Part shown: in pieces, positions 15,112 to 54,623 of the stretch | Numbering within the stretch: position 1 is the stretch's first letter | Layout: every line of letters starts with the position of its first letter | Assembly (NCBI RefSeq): GCF_963665445.1 | Contig: NZ_OY762276.1 | Location: 4,396,601-4,460,600, forward strand | Source of the DNA: an uncultured Desulfobulbus sp. | GTDB taxonomy: Bacteria; Desulfobacterota; Desulfobulbia; Desulfobulbales; Desulfobulbaceae | Reading direction: 5' to 3' | DNA: 64,000 nucleotides | Translations under genes and position numbers: made by a program | The notes under the pieces: model-generated | What the model saw: the letters and a program-made list of their open reading frames with translations, nothing else | Databases searched by the model: none | What the model was told of the DNA's origin: nothing

Positions 15112-18100
15112 ATGACACGTCGCGTTGCTGTAATCAGTTACGCCTTTCGTTTTCCGGGAACAACCACTGCGGGTTTCTGGGAAGATCTGCTGGCTGGACG
15201 CAATCTCGTCACCGAGGTCCAGGCGGAGCGATGGGCGCAAGAATCATTTTTTCATCCCCAAAAAAATCATCCCGGCACCAGCTATACCTTTGCCGCCGGC
15301 TCGATCGGCGATGTCACCGGGTTCGATGCCCATTTTTTCGGTATATCGCCGCGGGAAGCAACGGTGATGGACCCCCAGCAGCGGTTGCTTCTGGAAATGA
15401 GCTGGGAATCCCTGGAAAACGGCGGCATTTGCCCCTCTTCCTTAAAGGGGAGCCGGTGCGGGGTGTTCATCGGCATTGCCAGTGCCGACTATTCCTATCG
15501 CCTGGCCGACGATCTCAATAGCATTGAGGGGGCGGTGGCCACCGGCAATACCGCAAGCATTGCCGCCAATCGTATTTCCTATGTGTTTGATCTCTGCGGT
15601 CCAAGCATGGCGATCGACACCGCCTGCTCATCCGCCCTGGTGGCCTTTCACCAGGCCTGCAACTCCATCATTTCCGGAGAATGTGCCCAGGCACTGACCG
15701 GGGGGGTGAGTCTGCATCTTCATCCCTATGGGTTCCTGACCTTTTCCAAGGCCACCATGCTTTCTCCCCGGGGCCGTTGCAACGTATTCGATGCCTCTGC
15801 CGATGGCTACGTTCGTTCCGAGGGCGGCGGCATTTTTTTCCTCAAAGAGTACGAGCAGGCCGTAGCTGACGGCGATCCCATTCTGGCGGTGGTGGCGGCG
15901 AGTGCGGTCAATGCCGACGGTCGGAAAACCGGGCTCACTGTCCCCAGCCCCAAACGACAGGCCGAACTCCTGCGACAGGTATATAGCGATGCCGGCATAG
16001 CAGCCGATAGTCTCGACTACCTCGAGGCCCATGGTACCGGAACCGCAGTCGGTGATCCGGTCGAGGCGAGAGCCATCGGTGAGGCCCTGGGCATGAGCCG
16101 AGCTGCCGGACCACTCCCTATCGGGTCGGTCAAAGGCAACCTTGGGCACCTGGAGGCGGCTTCCGGCGTGGCAGGGTTGGTCAAGGCCATCACCTGTCTG
16201 CAGCACCGGAGTATTCCGGCCTCGGTCGGCATGGAGCGCATCAACCCCAACATTGATTGCAAGCGTCTCAATATCGATATCGTTACCGAACCCAGGCCTT
16301 TGAAGACAGAGGGACAACTGACCATAGGGGTCAACTCCTTTGGTTTTGGCGGGGCCAATGCCCACGTGATCCTGCAGACCCAACCCGATCAAGCAGCCGC
16401 AGCATCACCCGCACACCAGGAACCTTGTCCACCGCTGGTGCTCTCCTCGCGCGACCGGGAGGCGCTCCCCCAGTTGGCCGCCGCCTACGCCAAACTGGTA
16501 CAGGAACATCCCCAGGACTACCCGGCCATTGCCTATAACGCTGCATTTCGCCGTGAACAGCTTCCCCAAAGGGCAATTTTCTGGGGAACTGACAGTGCGG
16601 AGATCGGTTCTCTGCTCGATGCCGCGGCCCATGGTGGAACAGGGGCCGGACTCTACAGCGGAACCGGGCTGGACAACGCCTCCGGTGCGGCCTTCATTTA
16701 TTCCGGAAACGGCTCCCAGTGGGCCGGAATGGGAAGCCGGCTGCTGGCGGATCCACTTTTCCAGGCCACCATTGCCGAGATCGACACCCTGTTCAAGCCC
16801 CTGTCCGGCTTCTCCCTCGCTGATGAACTGGCAGGAAACAATGGCGAAGATCGCTACCAGTACACGGAAATTGCCCAGCCGGCCCTGTTTGCCATCCAGG
16901 TTGGCGTCACCCGTATGCTTGAGCGTGACGGCATTGTCCCCGTGGCCGTTGCCGGGCACAGTGTGGGTGAGGTTGCCGCCGCCTGGGCAGCCGGTATCTT
17001 GGATCTGCAGTCGGCGGTGACGGTGATTTTTCATCGCAGCCGCCTGCAGGGAACGACCAAAGGCCAGGGGCAGATGACCGCGATCGGGCTCGGGGGAGAA
17101 GAAACCGCGGAGTTGCTCCAATCTCTTGGGCTTGCGGAAACGCTTGCCCTGGCGGGAAGCAACAGCTATCGCGGGGCGACCCTGGCCGGTGCTCCGGAGG
17201 CGCTGAGCCTCGTGGAGGCCGAGCTGGAACGGCGCGAGATTTTCCATCGCCGGCTCGACCTGGATTATGCCTTCCACAGTCCGGCCATGGATCCCACGGA
17301 AACGGGTGTGTACGAAGCCCTGGCCGCCCTTCGTCCGAAGGGCGGCAGGCTTGCCATGTATTCCACCGTGACCGGCAAGCCCATTGACGGTGCCGAGTTG
17401 GGCGCGAAATACTGGTGGCTGAATATTCGCCGGCCGGTACTGTTTCAACAGGCCATCGAGGCGATGCAGGCCGAGGGCATCAATGTGTTCGTCGAAATCG
17501 GCCCCCATGCGGTTTTGCGCAGTTATCTCAATGACTGCATCAAGGCAGGCGGCAGCGAGGGGCAGGTCATCCCCACGCTCAAACGCGGTGATGATGATCC
17601 TCTGCGAGTGCGCGAGGCCAGTGCACAGGTGCTCATTGCCGGCAGTCCGGTCGATTGGTCCCGGTTTTTCGCATCGTCCTATCCTTTCCTTCAACTGCCC
17701 AACTACCCCTGGCAGCGGGAGAGGTATTGGCATACGCAAACGCCTGAGGCCCATGGCACCCTTGATCGCCACAAGGTGCATCCACTTTTGGGCTATCAGT
17801 TGCGGCAGCAGGAACTCTGTTGGGAAAATCAGCTGGATACCAAGCTGCTGCCGTTTTTGGGCGACCATGTGGTCGGGGACGCAACCGTATTTCCGGGTAC
17901 CGGCTATGCGGAACTGGCCCTGGCCGCAGCCCATGCCTGGCTGGGAGGCGAATTTCTTGAAATCGAGGACCTGGAAATTCGTTCCCCGCTGATCCTTGAG
18001 AACGATCGTTCCCAGTTGGTCCGTATCCAGGTTCAAGGCAAGGATGGCAGCACCACGGTCGTCGGCCGTTCTCTGGGGAGCGATGACCCCTGGACCAGCC

Positions 18101-21100
18101 ACTGCGTGTGCCGTATTCTCCAGGAGCCGGGGCATCTGCCGCTTACGCTGGAGTATCCGCACATTCCCCTGCACCAACCGGATTTCACCGGCGACAGCCA
18201 TCTGCGTCTGACCAAAATCGTTGGTCTGGACTATGGCCCCGCCTTTCAATGCATCGAGCATGGCTGGGTGAGCGAGCAGCAGTCGGTGCTCGCCGTGCTC
18301 CGGGTTCCGGAGGTGCTGAACAATGAAAATCCGCAGATGCATCTTCATCCCGCGGTGTTGGACTGCGCCTTTCAGCTGATTATTCAGTTGATGCGGGAAC
18401 GGGTGGCCTTGCATGAAGGCATCACCTTCATTCCGGTACGGATCGGGCGGATTGTGTTCCGCAAGAGTGGAGGTGCACCCACCCTGGCCCTGGTGAGCCT
18501 GCGTCGCTTTACCGAGCAATCCCTCTGTGCCGATTTCACCTTGTTTGACAGTGAACAGCAGGTCGTGGCCGTGGTGAAGGAGGCTCGTTTCCGCAGGATC
18601 CGTCTCCATAAAGGTGCATCGGATCGGCTGCAGCTGCTGACGGAACATTGGGAACCAAGACCGTTGATTGATACGGTTGCTGAACAGCCCTTGCTGTCCT
18701 TGACCCGGGTAAGGGAGGTCTTTGCCGATGTGGCGGCCCGGGTGGCGCTTTCCGGCCCGTTTCGCCGCTATAGCCAGGAGGTTGATCCGCTCTTGGATGT
18801 TTTGTGCAGTCAGTGGTGCGCTGAGGCGTTTCGCCAACTTGCCGATGAGCAGGGGATGATCGAGCAGCAGTGCATTCAAGAGTGGGGTTCGCTTCGCGCT
18901 GAACTGGATCCCTTTGTTCAGTCTCTTCTCCACCAGGGCTTGGCGGATCAAATGCTGACCAAAACAGCAACCGGTTATGGGATTCCGGTCGATGGCGAGG
19001 AGCAGGTTTCGGCAAAGGATATCTGGAATAGTATGGTTGCCGATTATCCCGATTCGTTTGCCCTCGTGCATGGTGTGGGGCAGATCGGCATGCATCTTGC
19101 CGAATTGATTCAGGGAGAACTGGCTGCCCATGAAATTTTTTCCCGAAAAGCATCGATGGCGGCGTTGATCTGTCAGGTGCTGAGTGGGGAAGGAAAACAG
19201 AAACTGGGACAGGCCCTGCGGCAGCTCATTGGCCAGGCCGTGCGGCAACTGCCCAAGGGGGCCCGCCTGGGGGTTGTGGAGATCGGGCAGCGTGTCCCCT
19301 CCTATGCAGGCGATCTGCAGGCGGTGATGGATCCGCAGTGCTGCGATCTCACCTTTGTCGGCGTTGCGCCCGACTTCGAAGTCGAGGGCTCCCAGCTCCA
19401 GGAACGGTATCCACGGCTGCAGCTCACTGCCCTGCACAGGGACGGTGAGACTGCGAAATCGGCGAGGATGGCACATCTCGTTGTCCTGACCCTTGATTTT
19501 ACAACTCTGGCGGAAGCGACCACGGCCTTGGAGTATGCCCGGTCCTGTCTGGTTCCCGGCGGCTCGTTGCTGATCATCGGCCTCCATCCGGCCCGATGGA
19601 TTGATTTTCTTTACGGCGGCCGACCTGAGTACTGGAATTTTTTTGATGATGATTCCAACAGGTCTCGACAAATCAGCGCCCAATTCTGGATGCAGCATCT
19701 GCAGAAACTGCAGTTTGCCCATGTCTCCCAGCTGACCTTCTCCTCCGACACCTTGGCCGGTCCGTATATGCTTCTGGCCCAACCCGCGGAAGGTCTGTTG
19801 CCGCCAATGCAGATTACGGGCCAGGATGGGCCGCGGAGCTGGATTCTGCTGATCGATCGTGGTGGCCCATCGGCGCAGTTGGCCGACAAACTTGCTGCCG
19901 GGCTGCAGACCAAGGGCGACATGGTGGTTGTGTCAGATGCCGAAGATGTACCGGGCCTGCAAGCCCTGCTGACGGAAACCACGGGGTTGTACGGTCAGCT
20001 CGACGGCATTGTCCATTTGGCGGGGATCGCGCCTCCACAGATCAGCCTGTCTGTGGAGGAGGAGGTCGAGCGACAGGCAGCTCGTTGCACCCTGGCGGCG
20101 CATATCCTCCAGGCCTGCGAGAGAAGTTCCACCCAGACTAACTGCTGGCTGGTCACCTGCGGTGTCGGTGATGCTGCAGCCCCAGCCGAGGATGCCCTCT
20201 GCTGTTGCGATGGCTCGCTGTGGGGGTTCGGGCGAACCCTGGTGAATGAGGCCCTTGATCTGCAGGTTCGCCTGGTCGATCTGGAACGGCTCGATACTCC
20301 GGAAGGGATCGCCGCCTTGGTCCGGGAATTCGATCTCCCGGATGACGAGCTGGAGGTGCACCTCACCGCCCAGGGCGGACGCTTTGTTCCCCGTTTGGCG
20401 TTTGAACCCCGTCAAATGGCGGGTGAGATCGACGAGCGGGACGAACGGGGGCTTGTGCGGCTCGACTTTTCCTTTGCCGGGAAAGTAGGGAACTTACGCT
20501 GGCGGGAGCAGCCGCGGGTGCTCCTGGCGGATGATGAGGTCGAAGTCGAGGTGCAGGCGACCGGACTCAATTTCCGCGACCTGATGTTTACCCTTGGCCT
20601 CCTTTCCGAAGAGGCCATTGAAAACGGATTTGCCGGTCCGACACTCGGCCTGGAGTTCTCCGGTGTGGTTCTCCGCGTTGGCGAGAGGGAGACCACCTTC
20701 GCCCCAGGAGACAAGGTGGTCGGTTTCGGCCCTTCCTGCTTTGCCGATAGGGTGATCACCAAGGCAAGTGCCATTACCCACCTGCCGCCTGGGATTTCCT
20801 TTGAGGCGGCTGCCACCATTCCCTGCACCTTTTTCACCGTCTACTACGCCCTGCATTACCTGGCTCAACTCGAGCCCGGTGAGCGATTGCTGATTCATTG
20901 CGCAGCCGGCGGCGTGGGCATTGCCGCGGTGCAGATCGCCAAATGGATGGGCGCGGAAATCTTTGTCACTGCCGGTTCCCGGGAAAAACGGGATTTCCTC
21001 CGTCTGCTCGGGGTGGATCATATCTTTGATTCACGCACCCTTGCCTATGCCGATGAAATCATGGAGGTCACCCAGGGCCAGGGCGTGGATGTGGTCCTGA

Positions 21101-22737
21101 ATTCGCTTGCGGGCGAAGCGGTCAGCCGCAATTTTCGTATTCTCAAACCCTTTGGCCGCTTCCTGGAACTCGGCAAACGGGATTTTTACGAGAACACCAA
21201 GATCGGTCTGCGTCCCTTCAGGAACAATATCAGTTATTTCGGTATCGATACCGATCAACTGATGCTGGCCCGTCCCGAGCTGACCAGGCGTCTGTTTGCC
21301 GAGGTGATGGACCTGTTCAGCGATGGCATCCTCCATCCCTTGCCCTATCACACCTTTGAGGCGGAAGAGATCGTCGATGCCTTCCGCTATATGCAGCAGG
21401 CGCGGCATATCGGCAAAATTGTGCTCACCTATCGCAACGGCATCAGCCAGGTGGAACGGCCGAAACCGGTTACCCGGCAAAGGCTCATCCTCCCGGAAAC
21501 CGGCACCTATCTCGTGACCGGCGGTCTGGGTGGGTTCGGCCTGCGCACCGCACGCTGGCTGGTGGAGCGGGGCGCCCGTCACCTGGTGCTGATCAGCCGC
21601 AGCGGCCCGGTCTCCGATGAGGCCAAGGCGGCCCTTGCCGCGTTTGCCCGGCAGGGGGTTGTCGTCTGGGCCAGGGCCTGCGACGTGACCGATTTGACGG
21701 CCATGCAGGCGCTCATGGCGGAAATAAATGCCTCCATGTGGCCGTTGAAGGGCATTGTCCATGCAGCCACGGTGATTGAAGACGGATTGATCCGCACCAT
21801 GGACGGCAACCAGATACGCAAGGTGCTGCTGCCCAAGGTACTTGGGGCCTACCACCTCCATCAGCTCACCGGGAAAATGGGTCTCGATTTCTTTATCCTC
21901 TTTTCCTCGGCCACGACCCTGTTCGGCAATCCGGGCCAGGGCAACTACGTGGCGGCCAATGCCGCTCTCGAGTCCCTTGCCGAAAATCGGCGTTCGGCCG
22001 GACTTCCGGCGACCTGCGTCCGCTGGGGTGCCATTGACGACGTCGGCTTTCTCGCCCGCAACACCGAGATCCGTGAGGCCCTCCAGGGGCGGATGGGCGG
22101 ATCGACCATCCAGTCTGCAGCGGCCCTGGCCATTCTCGAGGAGTTGCTGCTTTCCAATCGTTCCGGTCTTGGGGTGATGGAAATCGACTGGGCTGCCTTG
22201 TCCCGTTTTCTTCCCAGCGCGTCCAGTCCCAAGTTCACTGAGCTGGCGCGAAGCGGCAAGGGGGACAAGGGCGAGGGGGATGCGGATTCCATGCAGCGCC
22301 TGCTGGAGGAACTCTCCGATGAAGAGTTGCAGCAGGTCTGCATCGACATGCTCAAGGCCGAGGTGGCGGAGATCCTGCGTATGTCCCCGGACAAGCTCGA
22401 TCCCTCACGCTCGATGTATGACATGGGCCTTGATTCCCTCATGGGAGTCGAGCTGGTCGGGGCCCTGGAGTCGCGCTTCGGCGTGCGCCTGCCGGTCCTG
22501 ATCCTCAGCCAGAACCCGACCATTGCCAAGCTGAGCGAGTACATCATCGAACAGCTGCGGGGAGGTGAAGCGAAAGAGGAGGGGGCCGCCGAGCAGGAGA
22601 TGCTCGCTCAGGTGCAACATCTCTCCGGTCAGCATGGCAGCGAGGCGACGGCACTCAATATCGAGGAATTGGCCCAAGACCTCCAGGAAGGTGAGGGGGG
22701 CCCAACCACACGGATCATTCAAACCGATGCCAATTAG
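15112..22737 (+). CDS. Type I highly reducing polyketide synthase (KS-AT-DH-psiMT-ER-KR-ACP)
   Basis: One module of 2541 residues. KS has Cys172 (DTACSSA), His307 (EAHGTGT) and His346 (GNLGHLEA). AT has Ser617 (GHSVG), with YAFH at the specificity site, closer to malonyl-type. DH has His919 (GDHVVGD) and Asp1084 (HPAVLD). Residues about 1160-1600 resemble the C-methyltransferase region, but the SAM loop reads VVEIGQRVPS rather than a glycine-rich loop, so it is probably inactive. A structural KR half comes next. ER has AAGGVGIAA (about 1931-1939), and KR has TGGLGGFG (about 2136-2143) and GNYVAAN. ACP has Ser2442 (GLDSLMG). A tail of about 80 residues may dock a partner. There is no thioesterase. 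The order parallels animal FAS and fungal reducing PKSs. It should make a saturated acyl chain by iteration (inference), released by the overlapping AONS gene. Confidence 0.95.
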   Translation: MTRRVAVISYAFRFPGTTTAGFWEDLLAGRNLVTEVQAERWAQESFFHPQKNHPGTSYTFAAGSIGDVTGFDAHFFGISPREATVMDPQQRLLLEMSWESLENGGICPSSLKGSRCGVFIGIASADYSYRLADDLNSIEGAVATGNTASIAANRISYVFDLCGPSMAIDTACSSALVAFHQACNSIISGECAQALTGGVSLHLHPYGFLTFSKATMLSPRGRCNVFDASADGYVRSEGGGIFFLKEYEQAVADGDPILAVVAASAVNADGRKTGLTVPSPKRQAELLRQVYSDAGIAADSLDYLEAHGTGTAVGDPVEARAIGEALGMSRAAGPLPIGSVKGNLGHLEAASGVAGLVKAITCLQHRSIPASVGMERINPNIDCKRLNIDIVTEPRPLKTEGQLTIGVNSFGFGGANAHVILQTQPDQAAAASPAHQEPCPPLVLSSRDREALPQLAAAYAKLVQEHPQDYPAIAYNAAFRREQLPQRAIFWGTDSAEIGSLLDAAAHGGTGAGLYSGTGLDNASGAAFIYSGNGSQWAGMGSRLLADPLFQATIAEIDTLFKPLSGFSLADELAGNNGEDRYQYTEIAQPALFAIQVGVTRMLERDGIVPVAVAGHSVGEVAAAWAAGILDLQSAVTVIFHRSRLQGTTKGQGQMTAIGLGGEETAELLQSLGLAETLALAGSNSYRGATLAGAPEALSLVEAELERREIFHRRLDLDYAFHSPAMDPTETGVYEALAALRPKGGRLAMYSTVTGKPIDGAELGAKYWWLNIRRPVLFQQAIEAMQAEGINVFVEIGPHAVLRSYLNDCIKAGGSEGQVIPTLKRGDDDPLRVREASAQVLIAGSPVDWSRFFASSYPFLQLPNYPWQRERYWHTQTPEAHGTLDRHKVHPLLGYQLRQQELCWENQLDTKLLPFLGDHVVGDATVFPGTGYAELALAAAHAWLGGEFLEIEDLEIRSPLILENDRSQLVRIQVQGKDGSTTVVGRSLGSDDPWTSHCVCRILQEPGHLPLTLEYPHIPLHQPDFTGDSHLRLTKIVGLDYGPAFQCIEHGWVSEQQSVLAVLRVPEVLNNENPQMHLHPAVLDCAFQLIIQLMRERVALHEGITFIPVRIGRIVFRKSGGAPTLALVSLRRFTEQSLCADFTLFDSEQQVVAVVKEARFRRIRLHKGASDRLQLLTEHWEPRPLIDTVAEQPLLSLTRVREVFADVAARVALSGPFRRYSQEVDPLLDVLCSQWCAEAFRQLADEQGMIEQQCIQEWGSLRAELDPFVQSLLHQGLADQMLTKTATGYGIPVDGEEQVSAKDIWNSMVADYPDSFALVHGVGQIGMHLAELIQGELAAHEIFSRKASMAALICQVLSGEGKQKLGQALRQLIGQAVRQLPKGARLGVVEIGQRVPSYAGDLQAVMDPQCCDLTFVGVAPDFEVEGSQLQERYPRLQLTALHRDGETAKSARMAHLVVLTLDFTTLAEATTALEYARSCLVPGGSLLIIGLHPARWIDFLYGGRPEYWNFFDDDSNRSRQISAQFWMQHLQKLQFAHVSQLTFSSDTLAGPYMLLAQPAEGLLPPMQITGQDGPRSWILLIDRGGPSAQLADKLAAGLQTKGDMVVVSDAEDVPGLQALLTETTGLYGQLDGIVHLAGIAPPQISLSVEEEVERQAARCTLAAHILQACERSSTQTNCWLVTCGVGDAAAPAEDALCCCDGSLWGFGRTLVNEALDLQVRLVDLERLDTPEGIAALVREFDLPDDELEVHLTAQGGRFVPRLAFEPRQMAGEIDERDERGLVRLDFSFAGKVGNLRWREQPRVLLADDEVEVEVQATGLNFRDLMFTLGLLSEEAIENGFAGPTLGLEFSGVVLRVGERETTFAPGDKVVGFGPSCFADRVITKASAITHLPPGISFEAAATIPCTFFTVYYALHYLAQLEPGERLLIHCAAGGVGIAAVQIAKWMGAEIFVTAGSREKRDFLRLLGVDHIFDSRTLAYADEIMEVTQGQGVDVVLNSLAGEAVSRNFRILKPFGRFLELGKRDFYENTKIGLRPFRNNISYFGIDTDQLMLARPELTRRLFAEVMDLFSDGILHPLPYHTFEAEEIVDAFRYMQQARHIGKIVLTYRNGISQVERPKPVTRQRLILPETGTYLVTGGLGGFGLRTARWLVERGARHLVLISRSGPVSDEAKAALAAFARQGVVVWARACDVTDLTAMQALMAEINASMWPLKGIVHAATVIEDGLIRTMDGNQIRKVLLPKVLGAYHLHQLTGKMGLDFFILFSSATTLFGNPGQGNYVAANAALESLAENRRSAGLPATCVRWGAIDDVGFLARNTEIREALQGRMGGSTIQSAAALAILEELLLSNRSGLGVMEIDWAALSRFLPSASSPKFTELARSGKGDKGEGDADSMQRLLEELSDEELQQVCIDMLKAEVAEILRMSPDKLDPSRSMYDMGLDSLMGVELVGALESRFGVRLPVLILSQNPTIAKLSEYIIEQLRGGEAKEEGAAEQEMLAQVQHLSGQHGSEATALNIEELAQDLQEGEGGPTTRIIQTDAN

Positions 22738-24076
22738 GAAACAGCCGGGCCTGACGGCCCAGATCAAGGATAAGCTCATTCAGCAGGCCCTTGAACGGAA
22801 GCTGCGGCGGGCGGAGCAGAGCGACGAGTCGGTCGCACCTGTTCGCGGGGAAGCAACGCCCGAGAAGATTCCTGAGCAGTTCTACAAATTCAGCCTGCAT
22901 CCGGGATATCAGCAGATCCGCATCATCAACGGTGGGGCGGCTCGAATGGGGATCGACAACCCCTTTTTCAGGCCGCATTCCGGCGTGGCCGGGGCAACGA
23001 CCACGATCAAGGACAGGCTGTTCGTTAATTACGCCAGTTACAACTATCTCGATCTTTCCGGGGATGCTGAGGTCAGTACTGCGGCGAAAAGAGCTATTGA
23101 TCGCTACGGCACCTCGGTGTCGGCCAGCCGGCTGGTCTCCGGGGAACGACCGGTACACCGCCAGCTGGAGCAGGCACTGGCCAGATTTTACGAGGTTGAT
23201 GATGCCATCGTCCTGGTCAGTGGCCATGCCACCAACGTCACCACCATCGGCTACCTGTTCGGCCCTCGGGATCTCATCCTTCATGATGAGCTGGTGCACA
23301 ACAGCATTCTCCAGGGGATTGCCCTGTCGGGTGCCCGCCGTCTCCCCTTCGCCCATAACGACTGGCAGTCCCTGGAAACCCAGTTGACCGAACAACGGCA
23401 CCATTTCGAGCGGGTGCTGATCGTGGTTGAGGGGATCTACAGCATGGATGGTGATTTTCCCGACTTACCCCGCTATATCGAGTTGAAAAAGAAATACAGG
23501 GCCTTTCTCATGGTGGATGAGGCCCACTCCCTCGGCGTGATGGGAAAGAACGGTGGGGGAATTCGCGATCATTTCGGAGTGGACGGCAGGGATGTGGATA
23601 TCTGGATGGGGACTTTGAGCAAGACCCTGGCCGGATGCGGGGGCTACATTGCCGGGGAAACCGCCCTGATCGAGCATCTCAAGTTCCTTGTCCCCGGCTT
23701 TCTCTATTCCGTGGGCATGTCGCCGCCGCTGGCAGCTGCCTCCCTCAAGGCGCTTGAGATCATGCAGCGCGAGCCCGAACGGGTGCAGGCCCTGCAACGC
23801 AACGGACAACTCTTTTTGCAACTGGCCAGGGAGGCAGGGATAGATATCGGCACCAGCGAGGGGCTGGCCGTCATTCCGGTGATCACCGGGAGTTCCATCA
23901 GGGCGGCCCGGCTCTCGGCGGCCCTGTTTGCACGGGGCATCAATGCCCTCCCCATCCTCTATCCGGCGGTACCGGAAAAGGCGGCCAGGATCAGGTTTTT
24001 TGTCTGCTGCAGGCATACCGAGGCCCAGATCAGGGAAACGATTCAGGTCCTGATCGAGGAACTGGACCGGTTGTAA
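22727..24076 (+). CDS. Alpha-oxoamine synthase (BioF/serine palmitoyltransferase-like, PLP)
   Basis: About 449 residues from ATG 22727, which overlaps the PKS stop by 11 bases. More upstream starts would only translate PKS codons in another frame. The core is AONS family: NYASYNYLDLSGD, SASRLVSGE, the Asp/His motif MVDEAHSLGVMG, and PLP Lys299 in GTLSKTLAGCGGY. A charged N-terminal extension of about 90 residues is absent from BioF and could contact the PKS ACP. Family enzymes condense an acyl thioester with an amino acid and lose CO2. Overlap with a PKS that lacks a thioesterase suggests that it is the off-loading enzyme, giving a 2-amino-3-ketone as in fumonisin-type and sphingoid pathways (inference). 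A role in biotin synthesis is unlikely in this context. Confidence 0.9.
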   Translation: MPIRKQPGLTAQIKDKLIQQALERKLRRAEQSDESVAPVRGEATPEKIPEQFYKFSLHPGYQQIRIINGGAARMGIDNPFFRPHSGVAGATTTIKDRLFVNYASYNYLDLSGDAEVSTAAKRAIDRYGTSVSASRLVSGERPVHRQLEQALARFYEVDDAIVLVSGHATNVTTIGYLFGPRDLILHDELVHNSILQGIALSGARRLPFAHNDWQSLETQLTEQRHHFERVLIVVEGIYSMDGDFPDLPRYIELKKKYRAFLMVDEAHSLGVMGKNGGGIRDHFGVDGRDVDIWMGTLSKTLAGCGGYIAGETALIEHLKFLVPGFLYSVGMSPPLAAASLKALEIMQREPERVQALQRNGQLFLQLAREAGIDIGTSEGLAVIPVITGSSIRAARLSAALFARGINALPILYPAVPEKAARIRFFVCCRHTEAQIRETIQVLIEELDRL

Positions 24077-24084
24077 GGGGCGAG

Positions 24085-24921
24085 ATGGCACAACAGGCCT
24101 CGTTATGGGCGCAACTGCTCCGCGAGTTGAAAAAACCGCCCGCTGCCGGTGAGGTTGCGGAGTATCCGACGCTGCGCAATGCGATCCTCGACATTATGGC
24201 CGAGGGCCGTCGGAAAAACATCATCAATCTCCTGCTCAGGGTCGATATCACCACGCTGTGGGAGGAACTGGAGCGCTTGCGCAAGAACGGTGCAGCCAGG
24301 CCAACCCTCACCGCCTGTGTGTCCCAGGTCTTTGCCGCGACTATCGATGCGGATCGATCCCTGCAGGCCTACCGTTTAGGACGGAAAAAGATCGTCATCT
24401 TTGATGAGGTCGATCTGGCGATGATGGTCGAGCGGGAGATCGAGGGGCGACTTCTGCCGGTAGTCCATATCATCCGCGGCGCCAATCACAAGGATGTGCA
24501 GGAGATCGATCAATCCCTTCGCCGGGCAAAGATCGCGAAGCTGGGGGAGCATGGGCCACTGTCCCGGCTTGAGCATTTTTTTTTCACTCTGCCCCGGTTG
24601 CTGCGCCGTCTGGTCTGGTGGTATCTGCGCCGCGACCCCTATGCCTTCAAACAGTTGGCCGGCACAGTGGGGATCACCTCCATGGGAATGCACGTCCAGG
24701 GCTCAGCAGTGGTTTTGCCGATCACCCCGATGAGCCTGACCCTGTCGATCGGCTCCCTGGAACAGGGGTGGCAGGTTGTCGACGGAAAACCGGTCGAACG
24801 CCACCTCCTCCAGCTCAATCTCGGCGCGGATCACGATGTGATCGATGGCGCCCCGCTCATGCGTTTTGCCGAGCGATTTCGGGTCGCCTTGGAGCAGGGA
24901 GGTCCCCTTGTTGCTCCATAA
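24085..24921 (+). CDS. CAT-fold acyltransferase (E2 catalytic domain without lipoyl domain)
   Basis: Protein of 278 residues matching the 2-oxoacid dehydrogenase E2 / chloramphenicol acetyltransferase catalytic fold. The active-site motif is near the C-terminus (DHDVIDG, His250 and Asp254). It has no lipoyl or peripheral-subunit-binding domain, and no E1 or E3 gene is nearby, so it is not a true dehydrogenase subunit. A hydrophobic, basic stretch (about 165-190, FFFTLPRLLRRLVWWYL) suggests membrane contact. It lies 8 bases after the AONS gene with a GGGGCGAG ribosome site. It is likely an N- or O-acyltransferase acting on the AONS product (inference). The 3' end overlaps the convergent LtaS-like gene by 65 bases. 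Confidence 0.82.
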   Translation: MAQQASLWAQLLRELKKPPAAGEVAEYPTLRNAILDIMAEGRRKNIINLLLRVDITTLWEELERLRKNGAARPTLTACVSQVFAATIDADRSLQAYRLGRKKIVIFDEVDLAMMVEREIEGRLLPVVHIIRGANHKDVQEIDQSLRRAKIAKLGEHGPLSRLEHFFFTLPRLLRRLVWWYLRRDPYAFKQLAGTVGITSMGMHVQGSAVVLPITPMSLTLSIGSLEQGWQVVDGKPVERHLLQLNLGADHDVIDGAPLMRFAERFRVALEQGGPLVAP

Positions 24922-26440
24922 GGCCCATCTTTGCAAGCAGCTGCACGGCCAGTTGCTCCGCCCGTAGATCCATGTGTTGCCCCACCCTTTGTTCCTCCCT
25001 GTTTGACCAGAGAAAGTAATCGGTTTCACCGCTCGGATTGCCGAAGGTCCTGTACACCGCCGGCATAATGGGAACGTGATCGCCGTACCAACAGAGCCAG
25101 GCCTTCCTCTCAAGAGATTGCAGAGCTTGGGCGATCATTCCTGCCATCGTGTCGGCATTGCGCAGGTGACGCAGGTAGATGAGCAGGTCATCGCAGCCCT
25201 GGGGAAGAGCTTGCGTGCAATACTGATTGCATTCGTGGGCAAAGGGTTTTTCCCAGTGCAACGGACCGTGATTCTCCATGGTGATGACAAAGAGAAAGAC
25301 CGGCTGATTGGTTGAGCGGCGCAGTTCAGCGCAGATTGTCTCCCCCAGGGTAAGGTCGCCGATATAGGGGCCACTTTTTTCATTGCTTGCAAAGCTCTGG
25401 ATATCAATGAACTGATCAAAGCCGAACAGGGGGAATATTTTGTTCCGCTTGTAAAACTCGGCCGGGTAGGGGTGGATGCAGATCGTTTTGTAGCCATGCG
25501 ATTGCAGCAGGGTGGCCAGGGTGAAGGGAGACCAGGCGGCGAGTTTGCGATAGGGATTGAATCGGTGCACCCCAATCTGTGCGGGGCTGAGTCCGGAGAG
25601 AACAGCGAACTCGGTCCGCACGGTATTCGCCCCCCAGGCCGGAACGCGCAGCTGACCGTGGATCGCAGCTGCGTCCTTCAGGGTATCGATCTGTCCGAGA
25701 AGATCGGGTCGAATCAGGGAACACCAACCCCTGGGATCGAAATAGGATTCGCTCTGGACCGCAACCAGGTGGGGAAGGGGACTGACGTTTCTTGTCGCTG
25801 GTCCGATATTTTTAAGCGGCGGGACAAGCCTGGGATCGGTTCGCTCAGCAGTGATGTAGGGCAACATGCTGCCGAGAAATCCATGGGACCGGATATCCTC
25901 GATCGGGTCCCAGGTCATCGGAGGGGAGGCCTTGACGCCCCAGTACAAAAGACCGCTGGTGATGGCCGACAGAACCGCGATGCCGGCAAGAAAAACGGAC
26001 CAGGGCAGGGCGGCGGTCAGCGGTAGCTCGAGATACAATCCCAAGGCAATGGCGGAGACGACGATGATGGTTGCGCCAATGGCCTTGGCGATACCGAAAA
26101 AGGGCAGATACAGCCGGGGAAAGCGAATGGTATCGAGAAAATACTCAAAATCCTGGGCAAAAAATGGTTCATGCAGGGAATCGAACTTGGCGTTATTCAC
26201 CAGAACCAGGATGACCAGAAACGAGAGCGCCACAAAGGCGGCAAACCAGGGCCTCTGAAAGACGGCAAGTTCAAAACTATACACAGCCAGCCACAAACCG
26301 CAGTGCAGTGCCAGGGAGGAAAGCGGACGTCGCCATGGACCTGCCACTCCCGGTTTGACCAGGGCCTCGATGGGAAAGGAGGCGAGCAAACCTGTAAGAA
26401 TGGGCAGCCAGACCGCGGCGATGAAAGATTCAGCCGCCAT
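24857..26440 (-). CDS. LtaS-like membrane sulfatase-fold phosphotransferase
   Basis: About 527 residues from ATG 26440, which overlaps the SDR stop (ATGGCGGCTGA). Residues 1-200 carry about five membrane helices. The rest is an alkaline-phosphatase/sulfatase-fold domain as in lipoteichoic acid synthase and phosphoethanolamine transferases. It has metal Glu in VAVQSESYFD, a probable nucleophilic Thr in WGANTVRTEF, His in TMENHGPLHW, and the metal pair in WYGDHVP. Family members move phosphoglycerol or phosphoethanolamine from a phospholipid to a lipid or glycan at the outer face of the inner membrane. It is last in the kpsC-yhcH-kpsS-SDR order, so the acceptor may be the capsule terminus or the lipid of the neighbouring PKS pathway (inference). 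Confidence 0.85.
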   Translation of the reverse strand: MAAESFIAAVWLPILTGLLASFPIEALVKPGVAGPWRRPLSSLALHCGLWLAVYSFELAVFQRPWFAAFVALSFLVILVLVNNAKFDSLHEPFFAQDFEYFLDTIRFPRLYLPFFGIAKAIGATIIVVSAIALGLYLELPLTAALPWSVFLAGIAVLSAITSGLLYWGVKASPPMTWDPIEDIRSHGFLGSMLPYITAERTDPRLVPPLKNIGPATRNVSPLPHLVAVQSESYFDPRGWCSLIRPDLLGQIDTLKDAAAIHGQLRVPAWGANTVRTEFAVLSGLSPAQIGVHRFNPYRKLAAWSPFTLATLLQSHGYKTICIHPYPAEFYKRNKIFPLFGFDQFIDIQSFASNEKSGPYIGDLTLGETICAELRRSTNQPVFLFVITMENHGPLHWEKPFAHECNQYCTQALPQGCDDLLIYLRHLRNADTMAGMIAQALQSLERKAWLCWYGDHVPIMPAVYRTFGNPSGETDYFLWSNREEQRVGQHMDLRAEQLAVQLLAKMGLMEQQGDLPAPRRPEIARQNA

Positions 26441-27206
26441 AACCCAACAGGCGCAGAATGCGCTCAGAAATGGCTGCCGGCGCCACCGAAAGATACCAGG
26501 TGCCGAGATTGAGCGGAAAGGGAAAGCTGATGCGGGCCTGGTTGCGGGCCAGTCCCCGCTTGATGACACGGGCGGCCCGCTCCGGTCGCCAGAGAAAAGG
26601 TTTGGGGCCGGGCATCTCATTGCACATTTTCGACTCCACATAGCCGGGCATGATCACATTGACCCGGACGCCTTCCGGGGCGAGCCATCCGCGCAGCGCC
26701 TCCCCGTACGCCTTGATTGCGGCCTTGCTCGCGCTGTAGCTCGGGGTGAGCGGCAGACCGTAATAGGCGGCCAGGGAGCTGAATAGGGCGATTTGTCCGC
26801 ACCGACGCTGCCGCATCGATGGCAGCACCGCATCCACCACCGCCATGGCGGCCAGGACGTTGATTTCTATCAGGCTGGAGATCTGCTCCCAGGTTTCGCC
26901 CTGCCCAGAAGGACCGATGTTGGCATTGACGCCGGCAGCGGGAATGGCCAGGTCAATGGCTTGCTCCTGAGAGATTTCCGCAATCCAATCGCGCAGCTCC
27001 TCCACATTCCGCACATCAAACACCTGGGTGACGACCTGTGCTCCGCGTTGGCGGCAGCCATCGGCCACCTCGGCTAAGCGGCTTTCCTTTCTCCCCTGAA
27101 GGAGCAAGGTTTGTCCAGGGGATGCATAGGCCTCGGCCAAGGCACTGCCAATGCCACCGGTGGCACCGGTTATCAGGATGATTTTGGGGAGGCCAAAAGC
27201 ACTCAT
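26430..27206 (-). CDS. Short-chain dehydrogenase/reductase
   Basis: SDR of 258 residues with Rossmann motif TGATGGIG, NxAG-type segment (PAAGVNANIG), Ser in FSSLAAYYG and catalytic YSASK, followed by PGYVESKM. The C-terminal extension of about 40 residues is hydrophobic and may touch the membrane, as in 3-ketodihydrosphingosine reductases (weak resemblance). The start overlaps the kpsS stop (ATGA) and the end overlaps the LtaS-like start, so all three are coupled. An SDR is not a standard capsule-core gene. Reduction of the ketone made by the nearby AONS is a natural proposal (inference). Confidence 0.9.
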   Translation of the reverse strand: MSAFGLPKIILITGATGGIGSALAEAYASPGQTLLLQGRKESRLAEVADGCRQRGAQVVTQVFDVRNVEELRDWIAEISQEQAIDLAIPAAGVNANIGPSGQGETWEQISSLIEINVLAAMAVVDAVLPSMRQRRCGQIALFSSLAAYYGLPLTPSYSASKAAIKAYGEALRGWLAPEGVRVNVIMPGYVESKMCNEMPGPKPFLWRPERAARVIKRGLARNQARISFPFPLNLGTWYLSVAPAAISERILRLLGYGG

Positions 27207-28483: not shown

Positions 28484-28951
28484 TCACACCAGGCTGCGAT
28501 GAATCTTAACGACTACTTTTTTGACTTCCCCACCCTCATCAAAAACTCTCAACATTGGCATGTGTGCATCTTCAGGAAACAACACTGTGAAATATCCGGG
28601 GAAATTGTTCACGTGCAGACATGATGTAGCCGGTAGATGATATAAGGTGAAATCCAGCTCCGAATTATAAGGTGTTTTTACTTGCAGGGTTGATCGGTCA
28701 AACCATTCGATCGCCTCGCAACCAGACAACGACATCTGAATATCGACATATTCATCATGCGTCTCCAAGACGGATTCATTGGCCGTGCAGGTTGGATAAC
28801 GCATTACCCTGGCATATATCTTTTCCCCTTGGAGCTGAACCTTCTCAACAAGCTCGGTCTCTGCTGAAAGACTCTGCAGATATGCAAATACAGTCTCCCA
28901 AGAGGGGGAAGAAAAATATAGTTTCCAGTTTTCTAGCTTGTCATGGATCAT
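28484..28951 (-). CDS. YhcH/YjgK/YiaL family protein (DUF386)
   Basis: Cupin-like protein of 155 residues. Family features are ETHDEYVDIQ (metal-binding His and Glu), FPGYFTVLFPEDAHMP and a terminal VVKIH. Members occur beside sialic acid and other sugar-acid genes and are thought to act on free sugars, for example as anomerases. It lies between kpsC and kpsS, 42 bases before kpsS, which is not a usual member of the pair. A role on Kdo or another capsule sugar is inference. Confidence 0.87.
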   Translation of the reverse strand: MIHDKLENWKLYFSSPSWETVFAYLQSLSAETELVEKVQLQGEKIYARVMRYPTCTANESVLETHDEYVDIQMSLSGCEAIEWFDRSTLQVKTPYNSELDFTLYHLPATSCLHVNNFPGYFTVLFPEDAHMPMLRVFDEGGEVKKVVVKIHRSLV

Positions 28952-29042: not shown

Positions 29043-31097
29043 CTATTTGTTCATAGACAGTATCTTTTTTTCCAGGCGCTGATAGCATCGGATCAGCCGT
29101 GTTTTGAGGCCGGCCTTCTGCTGATGATGTTTGTTTGCCGTCAGCCAGTTGAGTAGGTGTTCCACCGTGCAGATCTGGCCTGTGGAGGGATCGACATAGG
29201 TGGGGTAGAGGATCAGGGTTCCGGCAATGAGTTCCGTCAGACTCAGCTGCCGACCGCGTCGCGGGCAAGTCAGGCGATCCTTGGTCAACCCCCATCCAGC
29301 GTAAAAGGGGAGGCCGTAGGTAGCGACCTTGCAGCCGCGCAGCAGGGCCTCAAAACCGCTGAGCGAGGTCATTGTATGAACCTCGTCGACCACGGCCAGC
29401 AAGCTGTTCATCGAAAGATCGGTTACGATTTCATCACAGTAGCGATACGCTTCAGTTGGGTCTATCTTGCCAAGACGATTGCCCACCAGTACATCGGGAT
29501 GCGGCTTATATACGATATATTCGTCCGGTCGCGCCATTCTGGCGGCACGCAGCAGGGCAAGATTGGTCCTGATCTCCGGGGAGCCGCGCAGAACCGAGGC
29601 ATCGTCCTCAACCTGACCCGGCACCAGGATCAGGGACTTGTCTTTGTGTGGAAAAGTGATTTCACCCGCATTGCCGACATTGTATTTGGTCAAGCCGTGC
29701 TGCAAGATATGTGCATGTAACGATTCGGCTCGTTTCAGCAGCCGCTCGCTGTAAAGGGTCTCACGGAGCAAGGTTTCCAGCCGGCTGGGGTGAAAACCGT
29801 CGTAATATATCCCCTCGTCGTCGAGAGCCAGCGACCCGGGACGAACCAAGTCCGACCCCAAACCGACCGAACGCAGGAATGCATCCTCCACGCGCAGCAT
29901 TGGCACCTGTTGTTCTTTCGCCCGGGAACGCAGTTGCTCCGTTTCTTTCGAAGCCCACAGAGCCCAGCGTTCTTTGCTTGCCTGTGCCTGCTCAAGAGCC
30001 GTTTTCGCATCCTTTGCAAATCTGACCGCTTTTTTTTCCTGTGAGAGAAAGGTTGGAAGAAATTTTCGTTTCCAGGGAGCCATGCCGCTGCAAACGGTCT
30101 TCCCCTGCGTCAGCAACCAGTGTCGACGTCGATCGGACAAGAGCGTGATGATATCTTCAATCTGGCAGCGCTGGCCCGTGATCGGATCGACATAACGGGC
30201 ATACTTCAAGTAGGCAGTGGCGAAAAGTTCATCAAGAGAGCAGCGGCGCGAGCGACGGGAACACGCCTGTTCATCCATGGTCAAACCCCAACCTGCATAA
30301 AAAGGCATTCCGAAACATCGCACCGTTTTATCGGCCAGCAGTGCCTCGAAGCCCAACAGGCTGCTCACAGTGTACACCTTGCTCACACCATCGAGTACTG
30401 ACCACGGGTTGACATGGTCGGTCAGCGGTTGAATCCGGGGGGAATCGGGTATTGACCCCAGGTAGCCTTTGCGGTGGCCTGCCAACACATCGGGGTGGGT
30501 TTTGACGATAATCTGCGCATGAGGATTTTCATCCAGAGCGGCCTGGAGCATATTTTGAAAGGAGCTCGCATCCGCCATGGCCCCGGTCACCGACATATCG
30601 CCGTAGGTTTGGTCGATCACCAGGATTCGTCCTATACCATCATCCGGCCAAAGCTTCTTCTCCGGTGCGTTATTGTACTTACTGAGACGCTCCTCTCGCA
30701 CCAGTGCACGAACGTGTCGGGCTCGCTCGAGAAAAGGTTGGTCAGACCAGCATCCTTCCTCCAACCATTGCTCGAGTTGCGATGGTTGGCGGGCATCATA
30801 GTAAATCCCCACAGGATCGACCACTAGGCTCAACGGCATTTCACCGTCCCGGCCTAGTTGAATAGAACGGAGAAATCCATCTTCCAAAGCAATGTAGGGA
30901 AGTTTGTTTTTGGAAGCAAACTGCCTCGCCTTCTCGGCTGTTGGTTTGTGCCCCCAACCGACCACCGCATCGAACTTTGCTCGGCGTTTGAATACCCATT
31001 GGCCGAACTCCTCGGCGAATTTTTCCCCATGCGGGATTCGTCTGATGCCCCGCGAAAAAACAAGGAGATTTCCCGTAATTTTTTTAGACGTAGTCAT
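29043..31097 (-). CDS. kpsC: Capsule beta-Kdo transferase KpsC (two-domain)
   Basis: About 684 residues from ATG 31097. The reading frame continues to an ATG at 31175, but that would add 26 residues with a hydrophobic stretch not expected in KpsC. Two homologous halves are visible. The first has ALEDGFLRS(I), DQTYGD, KTHPDVLAG and FYAGWGLT. The second has RVEDAFLRSVGLGSD, PGQVEDDAS, KPHPDVLVGNR and again FYAGWGLT. This is the LipA/KpsC duplication in which the halves add alternating beta-Kdo linkages of the poly-Kdo linker (known). It is the first gene of the kpsC-yhcH-kpsS-SDR-LtaS-like run. Confidence 0.94.
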   Translation of the reverse strand: MTTSKKITGNLLVFSRGIRRIPHGEKFAEEFGQWVFKRRAKFDAVVGWGHKPTAEKARQFASKNKLPYIALEDGFLRSIQLGRDGEMPLSLVVDPVGIYYDARQPSQLEQWLEEGCWSDQPFLERARHVRALVREERLSKYNNAPEKKLWPDDGIGRILVIDQTYGDMSVTGAMADASSFQNMLQAALDENPHAQIIVKTHPDVLAGHRKGYLGSIPDSPRIQPLTDHVNPWSVLDGVSKVYTVSSLLGFEALLADKTVRCFGMPFYAGWGLTMDEQACSRRSRRCSLDELFATAYLKYARYVDPITGQRCQIEDIITLLSDRRRHWLLTQGKTVCSGMAPWKRKFLPTFLSQEKKAVRFAKDAKTALEQAQASKERWALWASKETEQLRSRAKEQQVPMLRVEDAFLRSVGLGSDLVRPGSLALDDEGIYYDGFHPSRLETLLRETLYSERLLKRAESLHAHILQHGLTKYNVGNAGEITFPHKDKSLILVPGQVEDDASVLRGSPEIRTNLALLRAARMARPDEYIVYKPHPDVLVGNRLGKIDPTEAYRYCDEIVTDLSMNSLLAVVDEVHTMTSLSGFEALLRGCKVATYGLPFYAGWGLTKDRLTCPRRGRQLSLTELIAGTLILYPTYVDPSTGQICTVEHLLNWLTANKHHQQKAGLKTRLIRCYQRLEKKILSMNK

Positions 31098-31459
31098 TGC
31101 AGGATAACGTTGTACTGGGAAAAAAGAGATGGAAAGCAGCAACCCAATGAAAAAACTGCCCGCCATCATAGACAACTTGTCGAAATCGACAACAATTTCA
31201 TAACCAACGAGAACAACAAATGATCAAAAAAAATCATTGATGTTGTAACTATATGTTATCAAGCGTAATTTTTATAGGCGATGGTTTGTGAACCATAGGG
31301 GCGTAAACGACTCATGGCAGATCGTTGAGCTCGGCAGACTCGTGCACCCGGATAACCTCAAAATGGATCCAATGAGGAGGAGGCTCTAGGTTGTAGGTGA
31401 TTTACGGCAGATGGCTCGAAACACTGTTAAAATATTCAACTGTGACGAGTACTGGTATA
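31098..31459. other. Intergenic region between the HAD gene and kpsC
   Basis: 362 bases (284 if kpsC starts at 31175). It is a transition from AT-rich to GC-richer DNA, with a run of A/T near 31220-31270. No ORF, terminator or ops/JUMPstart element was recognised. It should contain the promoter or read-through leader for kpsC. Confidence 0.4.
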
Positions 31460-53533: not shown

Positions 53534-53534
53534 A

Positions 53535-54623
53535 TCAGAATCCGGCATGTTCCTTAATCGCCGCAACTATCAGCGATCCCATTCCAAACAACAACAGTAT
53601 CCCTACGAAACTGACCCCAATAGCATAGCCTCGCCGCGGCCAAAGCGGTTCATCCGGCAGGGTCGGATGGACAAAGGCCACCAGGTAACGACTCTTGTTT
53701 TCGGCCCGGATACGCGCCGCTTCCAGGGCCTGCATCGCCACGACAAGTTCCTTTTGGGAGAATTCGTGCTCGATTTTGAGTTGCTCGTACTCAGCGGCCA
53801 GATTGTTGACGGTGTCCTTCCCCCGGCCCGCCAGACGTTTTTTCTCTGTGTCTATCTGTCCTTCCAGGGCGTGCAGCCGCGCCTTCAATCCGACCATTTT
53901 GGCGCTATCTTCCCGCATGTAGGAGTGTGTCTCAGCCAACTCGGCGCGAACTTTAACCGCCGCTCCTTCCAGTTCGGCCACCAGGCCCTCTACCTTGCCG
54001 GCCTCTGCCGCAGGGTCGAGCAGGTTGTGAGCCATCCGAAACTGCTGTAATTTGTTTCTGGAGCGAGACAAACGCTGTTCAGCCCGGTCGATCTCGGTCC
54101 GTGATAAAGAGAGGCTGTCTTCGATTGCGCGCTCCCGCAGGCGGTTGACCAGCTCCTCGCTTTGGGCAAGAATCGCCTGGCAGATGTTTTGTGAAGTTTG
54201 CGGATCAAAGGCTCTGACTTGAAGTTTCAAAATTCCGGAGACCTGGTCGAAGCTGATTTTGACTTGACGCTGAAAGTACTCAGTAAACTCTTCTCGAGTC
54301 GGCTCCCGCTGCAATCGGGAAAAAAAATCAGCTTGTGGGTTCTGATAGTGAGCCTTGAGATGCAGCTGCTCATCAAGCAGGGCGAGCAACTCGTATGAGC
54401 CGATGTATTCCTCGACCACATGGGCATCTGCCGCGGTGCCTCCGGAGGATTGTCCCAAAAATGACAACAGTTCCGATGAACCGGTGCCTTCCTGGCTACG
54501 CAGGGAGAAGCGTGTTTCGGAAACGTACATGTCGCTGGCCCAAAACCCGAAATAAACCAACACGACCAGCATCGGCAGAGCAACAAACAATAACCATCTC
54601 AGTTGAGCCTTCGTCATCACCAT
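53535..54623 (-). CDS. kpsE: Capsule export inner-membrane co-polymerase KpsE
   Basis: Protein of 362 residues with the PCP-3 layout: TM helix near the N-terminus (about 9-30), periplasmic alpha/beta and long coiled-coil part (ALLDEQLHLKAHY, RAEQRLSRSRNKLQQF), a Pro-rich segment (HPTLPDEPLWPRR) and a C-terminal TM helix (about 330-352). KpsE links the KpsMT transporter to KpsD (known). It lies 4 bases after kpsT. A second ATG two codons in (54617) is equally possible. Confidence 0.9.
   Translation of the reverse strand: MVMTKAQLRWLLFVALPMLVVLVYFGFWASDMYVSETRFSLRSQEGTGSSELLSFLGQSSGGTAADAHVVEEYIGSYELLALLDEQLHLKAHYQNPQADFFSRLQREPTREEFTEYFQRQVKISFDQVSGILKLQVRAFDPQTSQNICQAILAQSEELVNRLRERAIEDSLSLSRTEIDRAEQRLSRSRNKLQQFRMAHNLLDPAAEAGKVEGLVAELEGAAVKVRAELAETHSYMREDSAKMVGLKARLHALEGQIDTEKKRLAGRGKDTVNNLAAEYEQLKIEHEFSQKELVVAMQALEAARIRAENKSRYLVAFVHPTLPDEPLWPRRGYAIGVSFVGILLLFGMGSLIVAAIKEHAGF

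What the first reader, a model, noticed from the sequence alone, without database searches (positions are those of the whole stretch)
15112..27206. PKS, AONS, CAT-fold acyltransferase, SDR and LtaS-like enzyme may form a polyketide route to a ceramide-like lipid
Seen: a reducing PKS without thioesterase overlaps an AONS gene and is followed by a lone E2/CAT-fold acyltransferase. Converging on it are an SDR and an LtaS-like phosphotransferase. Known: sphingoid-base pathways use an AONS, a ketone reductase, an N-acyltransferase and head-group enzymes, and fungal fumonisin uses a PKS followed by an AONS. Inference: the five genes could make a phospho-head-group amino-alcohol lipid from a PKS chain, in a bacterium where the sphingolipid genes spt/cerS are not what is seen.
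Basis: partly seen in the sequence, partly recalled or inferred. Interest (0 to 1): 0.88.

Follow-up and report, generated by a model that had tools for sequence, protein, structure and literature searches.

The report
Sphingolipid module of a capsule locus
A sulfate-reducer-like bacterium carries, at the edge of its capsule genes, a polyketide-synthase pathway that very probably builds a sphingolipid with a phosphoglycerol head, and this lipid is probably what the sugar capsule is anchored to.

Summary
In detail: intact PKS (KS-AT-DH-ER-KR-ACP, no TE), overlapping AONS, E2/CAT-fold acyltransferase, and converging LtaS-like enzyme and SDR. The set is the rkp-1 (Sinorhizobium) / wcb (Burkholderia) capsule 'lipid carrier' module, and its PKS-AONS pair matches SgaAB of Pseudomonas fluorescens, shown in 2025 to make C24-C28 sphinganines and, most likely, phosphoglycerol-sphinganines (PMC12134224). 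Published sgaAB primers land on the ends of the PKS and AONS genes of a Pseudomonas locus that also carries LtaS-like, SDR, KpsS and KpsC genes. The AONS falls outside BioF, KBL and classical SPT. The LtaS-like enzyme is closest to phosphoglycerol transferase GacH; in 335 surveyed genomes it was found only with this AONS. Best reading: PKS + AONS + SDR make sphinganine, the LtaS-like enzyme adds phosphoglycerol, giving a lyso-PG look-alike that KpsS/KpsC extend with Kdo. The CAT-fold protein (4 of 80 related loci) may N-acylate it, a ceramide variant; that is unproven. In my searches, whose listings were partly capped, no paper joined the sphingolipid and capsule literatures.

The parts
15112..22737 (+). 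Monomodular type I PKS (KS-AT-DH-ER-KR-ACP, no TE), SgaA/RkpA/WcbR type; makes the long chain
   Evidence: Pfam; motifs; homologs
22727..24076 (+). AONS (PLP alpha-oxoamine synthase), SgaB/RkpG/WcbT type; presumed serine + acyl-ACP to 3-keto-sphinganine. Longest ORF starts at 22565
   Evidence: tree; residues
24085..24921 (+). Stand-alone E2/CAT-fold acyltransferase with HDVIDG; proposed N-acylation (unproven)
24857..26440 (-). Membrane phosphoglycerol-transferase-like enzyme (LtaS/GacH type, RkpI/WcbQ position); presumed to add glycerol phosphate from PG. Longest ORF reaches 26641
26430..27206 (-). SDR, SgaC/RkpH/WcbP position; presumed 3-keto-sphinganine reductase
   Evidence: 62% identical to the SDR of the sgaAB-type locus L097
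27203..28441 (-). KpsS (beta-Kdo transferase family, RkpJ/WcbO position)
   Evidence: PF05159; NCBIfam KpsS model matched below its cut-off
28484..28951 (-). YhcH/YjgK/YiaL (DUF386) protein between KpsS and KpsC
29043..31175 (-). KpsC-like protein (Capsule_synth, three stretches)
51902..53566 (-). KpsD-like polysaccharide export protein
   Evidence: PF02563
53535..54623 (-). KpsE-like protein (no Pfam match; its homolog in L125 is annotated chain-length determining protein)
54628..55290 (-). KpsT-like ABC ATPase
   Evidence: PF00005
55287..56189 (-). KpsM-like ABC permease
   Evidence: PF01061
56960..57694 (+). Cytidylyltransferase, probably CMP-Kdo synthetase
   Evidence: PF02348; KdsB reading recalled

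Best explanation
This is the lipid module of an ABC-exported (KpsSC/KpsMTED-type) capsule, of the rkp-1/wcb kind. The iterative PKS builds a long saturated chain on its own ACP (inferred from intact domains; PKS and AONS shown to be needed for sphinganine in Pseudomonas). With no TE, the chain is off-loaded by the AONS, which condenses it with L-serine to a 3-keto-sphinganine (shown in vitro with acyl-CoA for SgaB, inferred here). The SDR reduces it to sphinganine (inferred; proposed for SgaC). The five-helix membrane enzyme of the GacH/LtaS type transfers glycerol phosphate from phosphatidylglycerol to it (inferred from fold, residues and the published +154 Da lipids). The product, phosphoglycerol-sphinganine, is a one-chain phosphoglycerol lipid like the (lyso-)PG on which E. 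coli KpsS starts; KpsS and KpsC would put the Kdo linker on its glycerol, and the capsule is built and exported on it (inferred). In this genome the CAT-fold protein may add an N-acyl chain, giving a dihydroceramide-phosphoglycerol anchor (speculative).
Against: Topology: five N-terminal hydrophobic segments put the transferase domain in the periplasm if it is built like LtaS, while KpsS/KpsC work in the cytoplasm, so the lipid would have to flip back or be changed after export. Six of 16 AONS-positive genomes lack an LtaS-like match (E 1e-40), and G547 and G593 have AONS and LtaS-like but no KpsS at that threshold. 28 of 80 loci show none of KpsS, KpsC, KpsE, KpsM, KpsT within the fetched stretch (many are short contigs). 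L050 and L114 have the AONS with no PKS match upstream. The published work treats the lipids as secondary metabolites and its main text does not mention capsule. The MYb115 locus itself was not in hand; link by primers and locus-tag spacing only. No lipid data for this organism.
Confidence: 0.6

Rival explanations
1. Free sphingolipid: the module makes sphinganine and phosphoglycerol-sphinganine as a membrane lipid or secondary metabolite in its own right, and the capsule genes are only neighbours.
For: Peters et al. describe SgaAB lipids as secondary metabolites acting on a nematode host, with sphinganines detected as such. Related AONS enzymes sit in longer fused frames (one of four scanned: FAAL-ACP-AONS) with no Kps match in the fetched stretches L040-L043.
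Against: KpsS, KpsC or exporter genes lie within the fetched stretch in 52 of 80 loci; rkp-1 mutants are KPS-deficient (passage); LtaS-like and SDR are packed with KpsS in 31 of 32 loci.
Confidence: 0.2
2. Anchor exchange: capsule is first built on (lyso-)PG in the cytoplasm and, after export, the LtaS-like enzyme attacks that phosphodiester and moves the glycerol-phosphate-Kdo-capsule onto sphinganine in the periplasm, leaving diacylglycerol behind.
For: Same chemistry as LtaS/GacH (recalled) and the right side of the membrane for a five-helix enzyme; removes the topology problem.
Against: Phosphoglycerol-sphinganine without capsule is reported as the most likely structure of three lipids; rkp-1 is described as needed for export and secretion itself (passages).
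Confidence: 0.13
3. The AONS product is not a sphingoid base but another alpha-amino ketone, made from a different amino acid or starter.
For: An Asn that is invariant in the SPT, BioF-like and KBL rows is Tyr in 22 of 22 capsule-type and 6 of 6 fused AONS rows, so the amino-acid pocket may differ.
Against: A Pseudomonas member (L062) of the same clade carries the same Tyr, and SgaB from Pseudomonas preferred serine almost exclusively.
Confidence: 0.07

Closest known systems
SgaAB(C) sphingolipid cluster of Pseudomonas fluorescens MYb115 (PMC12134224)
   Same: Iterative PKS + AONS + SDR; the L097 locus that matches the published primers is 50% (PKS), 67% (AONS) and 62% (SDR) identical to the window.
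   Different: The paper's main text does not mention capsule and names no enzyme for the phosphoglycerol head in the sections read; L097 carries GNAT and PhyH genes instead of the CAT-fold gene.
rkp-1 region of Sinorhizobium meliloti (rkpAGHIJ)
   Same: Same five functions, PKS, AONS, SDR, LtaS-like, KpsS, in one block.
   Different: Lower identity, all on one strand, no CAT-fold or KpsC match in L124.
wcb capsule cluster of Burkholderia (wcbO-wcbT)
   Same: AONS, PKS WcbR, sulfatase-like, SDR and capsule gene side by side (passage; letter names partly recalled); Caballeronia L125 is similar.
   Different: An LpxC-like deacetylase lies between PKS and AONS; no CAT-fold match in L125.
Fungal fumonisin/sphingofungin clusters (PKS then AONS/SPT-like)
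   Same: KDSR-like reductases in PKS-derived sphinganine-like toxin clusters (stated); release of the PKS chain by an AONS (recalled, and in the finding).
   Different: Secreted toxins, not capsule-linked; no homology test run here.
GacH / LtaS phosphoglycerol transferases
   Different: Acceptor is here presumed to be a sphingoid base rather than a cell-wall glycan or teichoic chain.

Membership tests
SgaAB-type PKS sphingolipid cluster | Monomodular reducing PKS without TE directly followed by an AONS of the same clade | tested here: met
   published primers locate sgaAB in a Pseudomonas locus orthologous to the window; MYb115 SgaB itself not compared
SgaAB-type PKS sphingolipid cluster | Product: sphinganine and phosphoglycerol-sphinganine | not testable with these tools
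   needs lipid mass spectrometry of the organism
rkp-1/wcb capsule lipid module | PKS, AONS, SDR, LtaS-like and KpsS genes together | tested here: met
rkp-1/wcb capsule lipid module | Required for capsule export | not testable with these tools
   needs a mutant; known for Sinorhizobium only from passages
Classical bacterial SPT (NCBIfam NF047599, NF047600, NF047603) | Score above the family cut-off | tested here: not met
   259, 301 and 193 bits against cut-offs 500, 640, 670; separate clade
BioF (TIGR00858) and KBL (TIGR01822) | Score above cut-off and grouping in the tree | tested here: not met
   331 and 246 bits against 426 and 493; outside both groups
LtaS/GacH phosphoglycerol transferase | N-terminal helices, alkaline-phosphatase-like domain, catalytic Thr, metal Glu, DH pair, His | tested here: met
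   (residue roles recalled)
LtaS/GacH phosphoglycerol transferase | Transfers glycerol phosphate from PG | not testable with these tools
   inferred from fold and from the +154 Da lipids in Pseudomonas
CAT/E2 acyltransferase | Fold and HxxxDG motif | tested here: met
Ceramide synthase (N-acylation of a sphingoid base) | N-acyl transfer to sphinganine | not tested
   position beside the AONS only; no enzymatic data
2-oxoacid dehydrogenase E2 subunit | Lipoyl and E1/E3-binding domains in the same chain | tested here: not met
   only PF00198 found in 278 aa

The most novel reading that the evidence does not exclude
A whole class of Gram-negative capsules (rkp-1, wcb and this locus) is anchored not on ordinary phosphatidylglycerol but on a polyketide-made phosphoglycerol-sphinganine that imitates lyso-PG; clades then tune its amine with unrelated enzymes (CAT-fold, GNAT, LpxL-like or formyl transferase), so that in Desulfobulbus the anchor is a ceramide. 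Sphingolipid making would then be far commoner in Proteobacteria than spt gene counts suggest.
Probability: 0.45. Interest if true: 0.82.

Novelty: new variant of a known kind. Interest (0 to 1): 0.64.

Why it matters
The chemical nature of the lipid made by the rkp-1 and wcb PKS genes is left open in the passages I could read, although those genes matter for rhizobial symbiosis and for capsules of several Proteobacteria. Putting the 2025 sphingolipid biochemistry, the KpsS (lyso-)PG acceptor and the GacH-like enzyme side by side gives one concrete structure to look for. If right, capsules and sphingolipids, two surface systems treated separately, are one pathway in many bacteria, and it extends to relatives of sulfate reducers with a possible N-acyl variant.

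Tried and rejected
Rejected: AONS as biotin (BioF) or threonine (KBL) enzyme: separate clade and below cut-offs. Classical SPT route: own genome has no NF047600 match at E 1e-150. The CAT-fold protein as a 2-oxoacid dehydrogenase E2: no lipoyl domain. The LtaS-like enzyme as a phosphoethanolamine transferase: GacH and LtaS rank above EptC, which does not exclude it. Sponge swf PKS clusters: reductase/sulphotransferase and radical SAM genes instead (PMC3908369, parts 1-3 of 5 read).

Led nowhere: distant CAT-fold homologs (matches in 4 of 395 phylum genomes including G000); the three fetched contexts have no match to this AONS. Review PMC12220298 has none of the terms rkp, sphing, polyketide, lyso, wcb or Sinorhizobium in its main text. 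Kiss 1997, Mueller 2009 and Willis 2013 are not held; I saw only their titles in reference lists.

Literature link between sphingolipid and capsule: searches (20 of 243 listed; 1 of 1; 4 of 4; 15 of 39; 15 of 27; 0 papers hold both the sphingolipid title phrase and 'capsul'). Only open-licence PMC papers are covered, listings were capped, and supplements were not read, so absence is not proven. Papers seen only as passages: PMC4881576, PMC3557214, PMC7902896, PMC2945791, PMC5507470, PMC4275268, PMC7694667, PMC11041684, PMC13410964.

Full report
Where it lies. The window is part of a complete 5.08 Mb genome. Its nearest named relative by AONS identity is Desulfobulbus rhabdoformis (L044, 84%).

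Observation. The five genes are real and intact. The PKS is one reducing module, KS-AT-DH-ER-KR-ACP, with no thioesterase; the AT carries the YAFHS motif usually linked to malonyl-CoA (recalled). The AONS starts most likely at ATG 22727, 11 bases inside the PKS. The CAT-fold gene follows the AONS by 8 bases. The LtaS-like gene, read from ATG 26440, and the SDR gene overlap by 11 bases and converge on the CAT-fold gene. Directly after the SDR come KpsS and, past a small DUF386 gene, KpsC. At 51.9-56.2 kb lie genes of KpsD, KpsE, KpsT and KpsM type, and at 57.0 kb a cytidylyltransferase, probably the CMP-Kdo synthetase. So the five genes appear to be one end of a roughly 42 kb capsule locus; not every gene in between was classified.

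Relatives. Of these 80: PKS directly upstream in 77; of the other three, L115 starts inside a PKS-like end, while L050 (1.2 kb upstream held) and L114 (10 kb) have no PKS match. LtaS-like in 33, SDR in 35, both in 32 and then adjacent on one strand in 32 of 32; KpsS in 47, next to the SDR in 31 of those 32; KpsC in 38; CAT-fold in 4. Many loci are cut by contig ends or the 10 kb flank, so absences are weak. The complete order PKS-AONS-CAT with converging LtaS-like-SDR-KpsS is seen in the window, G001 (L039), D. rhabdoformis (L044) and Collimonas (L045). Of the other two CAT-fold loci, L081 ends with the CAT gene and L046 has no LtaS-like or KpsS match worth naming in the 9 kb that follow. Among 95 near genomes six have an AONS above 50% identity: G000, G001, and four (G010, G019, G024, G090) in longer frames, of which the one scanned is FAAL-ACP-AONS. 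The module is therefore patchy and was probably moved horizontally; one plasmid typed as mobilizable carries PKS, AONS, LtaS-like, SDR, KpsS and KpsC genes.

Known counterparts. The S. meliloti block L124 holds PKS (best segment 35%), AONS 51%, SDR 28%, LtaS-like 30% and KpsS 38%, the rkp-1 region. Passages read say rkp-1 products make and modify a lipid carrier involved in K-antigen secretion, or a lipophilic molecule that may be carrier or anchor (PMC4881576; PMC3557214). A table passage for B. pseudomallei lists AONS, LpxC-like, WcbR PKS, sulfatase, SDR and capsule gene side by side (PMC4275268). None of these passages names the lipid.

What the lipid is. In P. fluorescens MYb115, PKS SgaA and AONS SgaB are both needed for C24, C26 and C28 sphinganines; SgaB binds L-serine and forms 3-ketodihydrosphinganines from acyl-CoAs, nearly exclusively with serine; three further lipids 154 Da heavier are 'most likely' phosphoglycerol sphingolipids; an SDR (SgaC) is proposed as reductase; 6,101 homologous pairs were counted, dominantly in Burkholderia (PMC12134224; sections 7, 8, 9 and Discussion read, other parts as passages). 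That locus is not in the collections I could open, so I used the published primers: in L097 (Pseudomonas kielensis) the sgaA forward primer matches the PKS start without mismatch, the reverse primer the PKS end with one, and the sgaAB reverse primer the AONS end with five. In L097 four genes lie between AONS and SDR (PhyH, KpsC-like, GNAT, LtaS-like), then KpsS and KpsC; the locus tags in the paper, RS19800 for the AONS and RS19775 for the SDR, leave room for four genes if tags run in steps of five. So the published sphingolipid cluster very probably sits in such a capsule locus, though the words 'capsul' and 'polysaccharide' do not occur in its main text.

AONS. The tree of 64 rows (17 of the 80 loci included; quick search, SH-aLRT only, no bootstrap) puts the capsule-type AONS (22 rows, 96) with fused AONS of FAAL-ACP, Planktothrix and Streptomyces proteins (together 28 rows, 100), apart from the BioF-like, SPT and KBL rows; one long-branched row, L029, has no sure place. 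The PLP lysine, stacking His, Asp, His and Arg are invariant (roles recalled); an Asn constant in SPT (9 of 9), BioF-like (24 of 24) and KBL (1 of 1) rows is Tyr in 28 of 28. By PDB sequence search the best relative is an SPT. Function is therefore SPT-like without membership of the SPT families.

Why this fits KpsS. In E. coli, KpsS puts the first Kdo on (lyso-)PG and KpsC extends it (passages, PMC7694667; PMC11041684). Phosphoglycerol-sphinganine is the same kind of one-chain phosphoglycerol lipid. The weak point is topology: the transferase domain should be periplasmic, KpsS cytoplasmic. Either the lipid flips back or the enzyme exchanges anchors after export (rival).

Verdict. Observation confirmed; interpretation right at its core but set in the wrong frame: a capsule-linked sphingolipid module of known kind, with an unusual N-acyltransferase candidate. 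Shown here: gene content, orthology, families, co-occurrence. Shown by others in Pseudomonas: sphinganine and serine chemistry. Inferred: phosphoglycerol transfer by the LtaS-like enzyme, use as capsule anchor, N-acylation.

Noticed in passing
L041:14189-17641, L042, L043:8845-12369, L040: Four relatives of the window's genome carry the same AONS clade (53-56%) in long frames; the one scanned (L041) is FAAL-ACP-AONS, and a 2656-aa frame with a weak PKS match lies in the same locus: perhaps a second, fatty-acid-fed way to a similar product.
   Followed up: partly
L127 (Pseudomonas sp. TMW 2.1634 plasmid pL21564-1): A plasmid typed as mobilizable carries PKS, AONS, PhyH, GNAT, LtaS-like, SDR, KpsS and KpsC genes, a likely vehicle for the patchy spread.
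   Followed up: no
L125:11018-11944: In Caballeronia insecticola an LpxC-like deacetylase (record annotation) lies between PKS and AONS, as in the Burkholderia wcb list; its role in a sphingoid pathway is unexplained.
   Followed up: no
L126:3608-11206 and L128:6311-11134: Planktothrix and Streptomyces plasmids encode the AONS in one frame with a PKS-like protein.
   Followed up: partly
L097:11426-12466: A phytanoyl-CoA dioxygenase-like gene (PhyH) sits in 7 of 80 loci, all Pseudomonas; it might hydroxylate the chain or base.
   Followed up: no
L050:1-1200 and L114:1-10000: Two methanotroph-group loci carry the capsule-type AONS without any PKS match upstream; where their acyl chain comes from is open.
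   Followed up: no
window 48384-49988: A 534-aa frame in the capsule region gives only odd partial Pfam matches (DUF4756, SOAR, ubiquitin) with no stretch passing on its own, probably coiled coil.
   Followed up: no
window 31460-33715: A 751-aa protein with a weak HAD-hydrolase match next to KpsC; only one weak homolog match (L110) among the loci searched.
   Followed up: no
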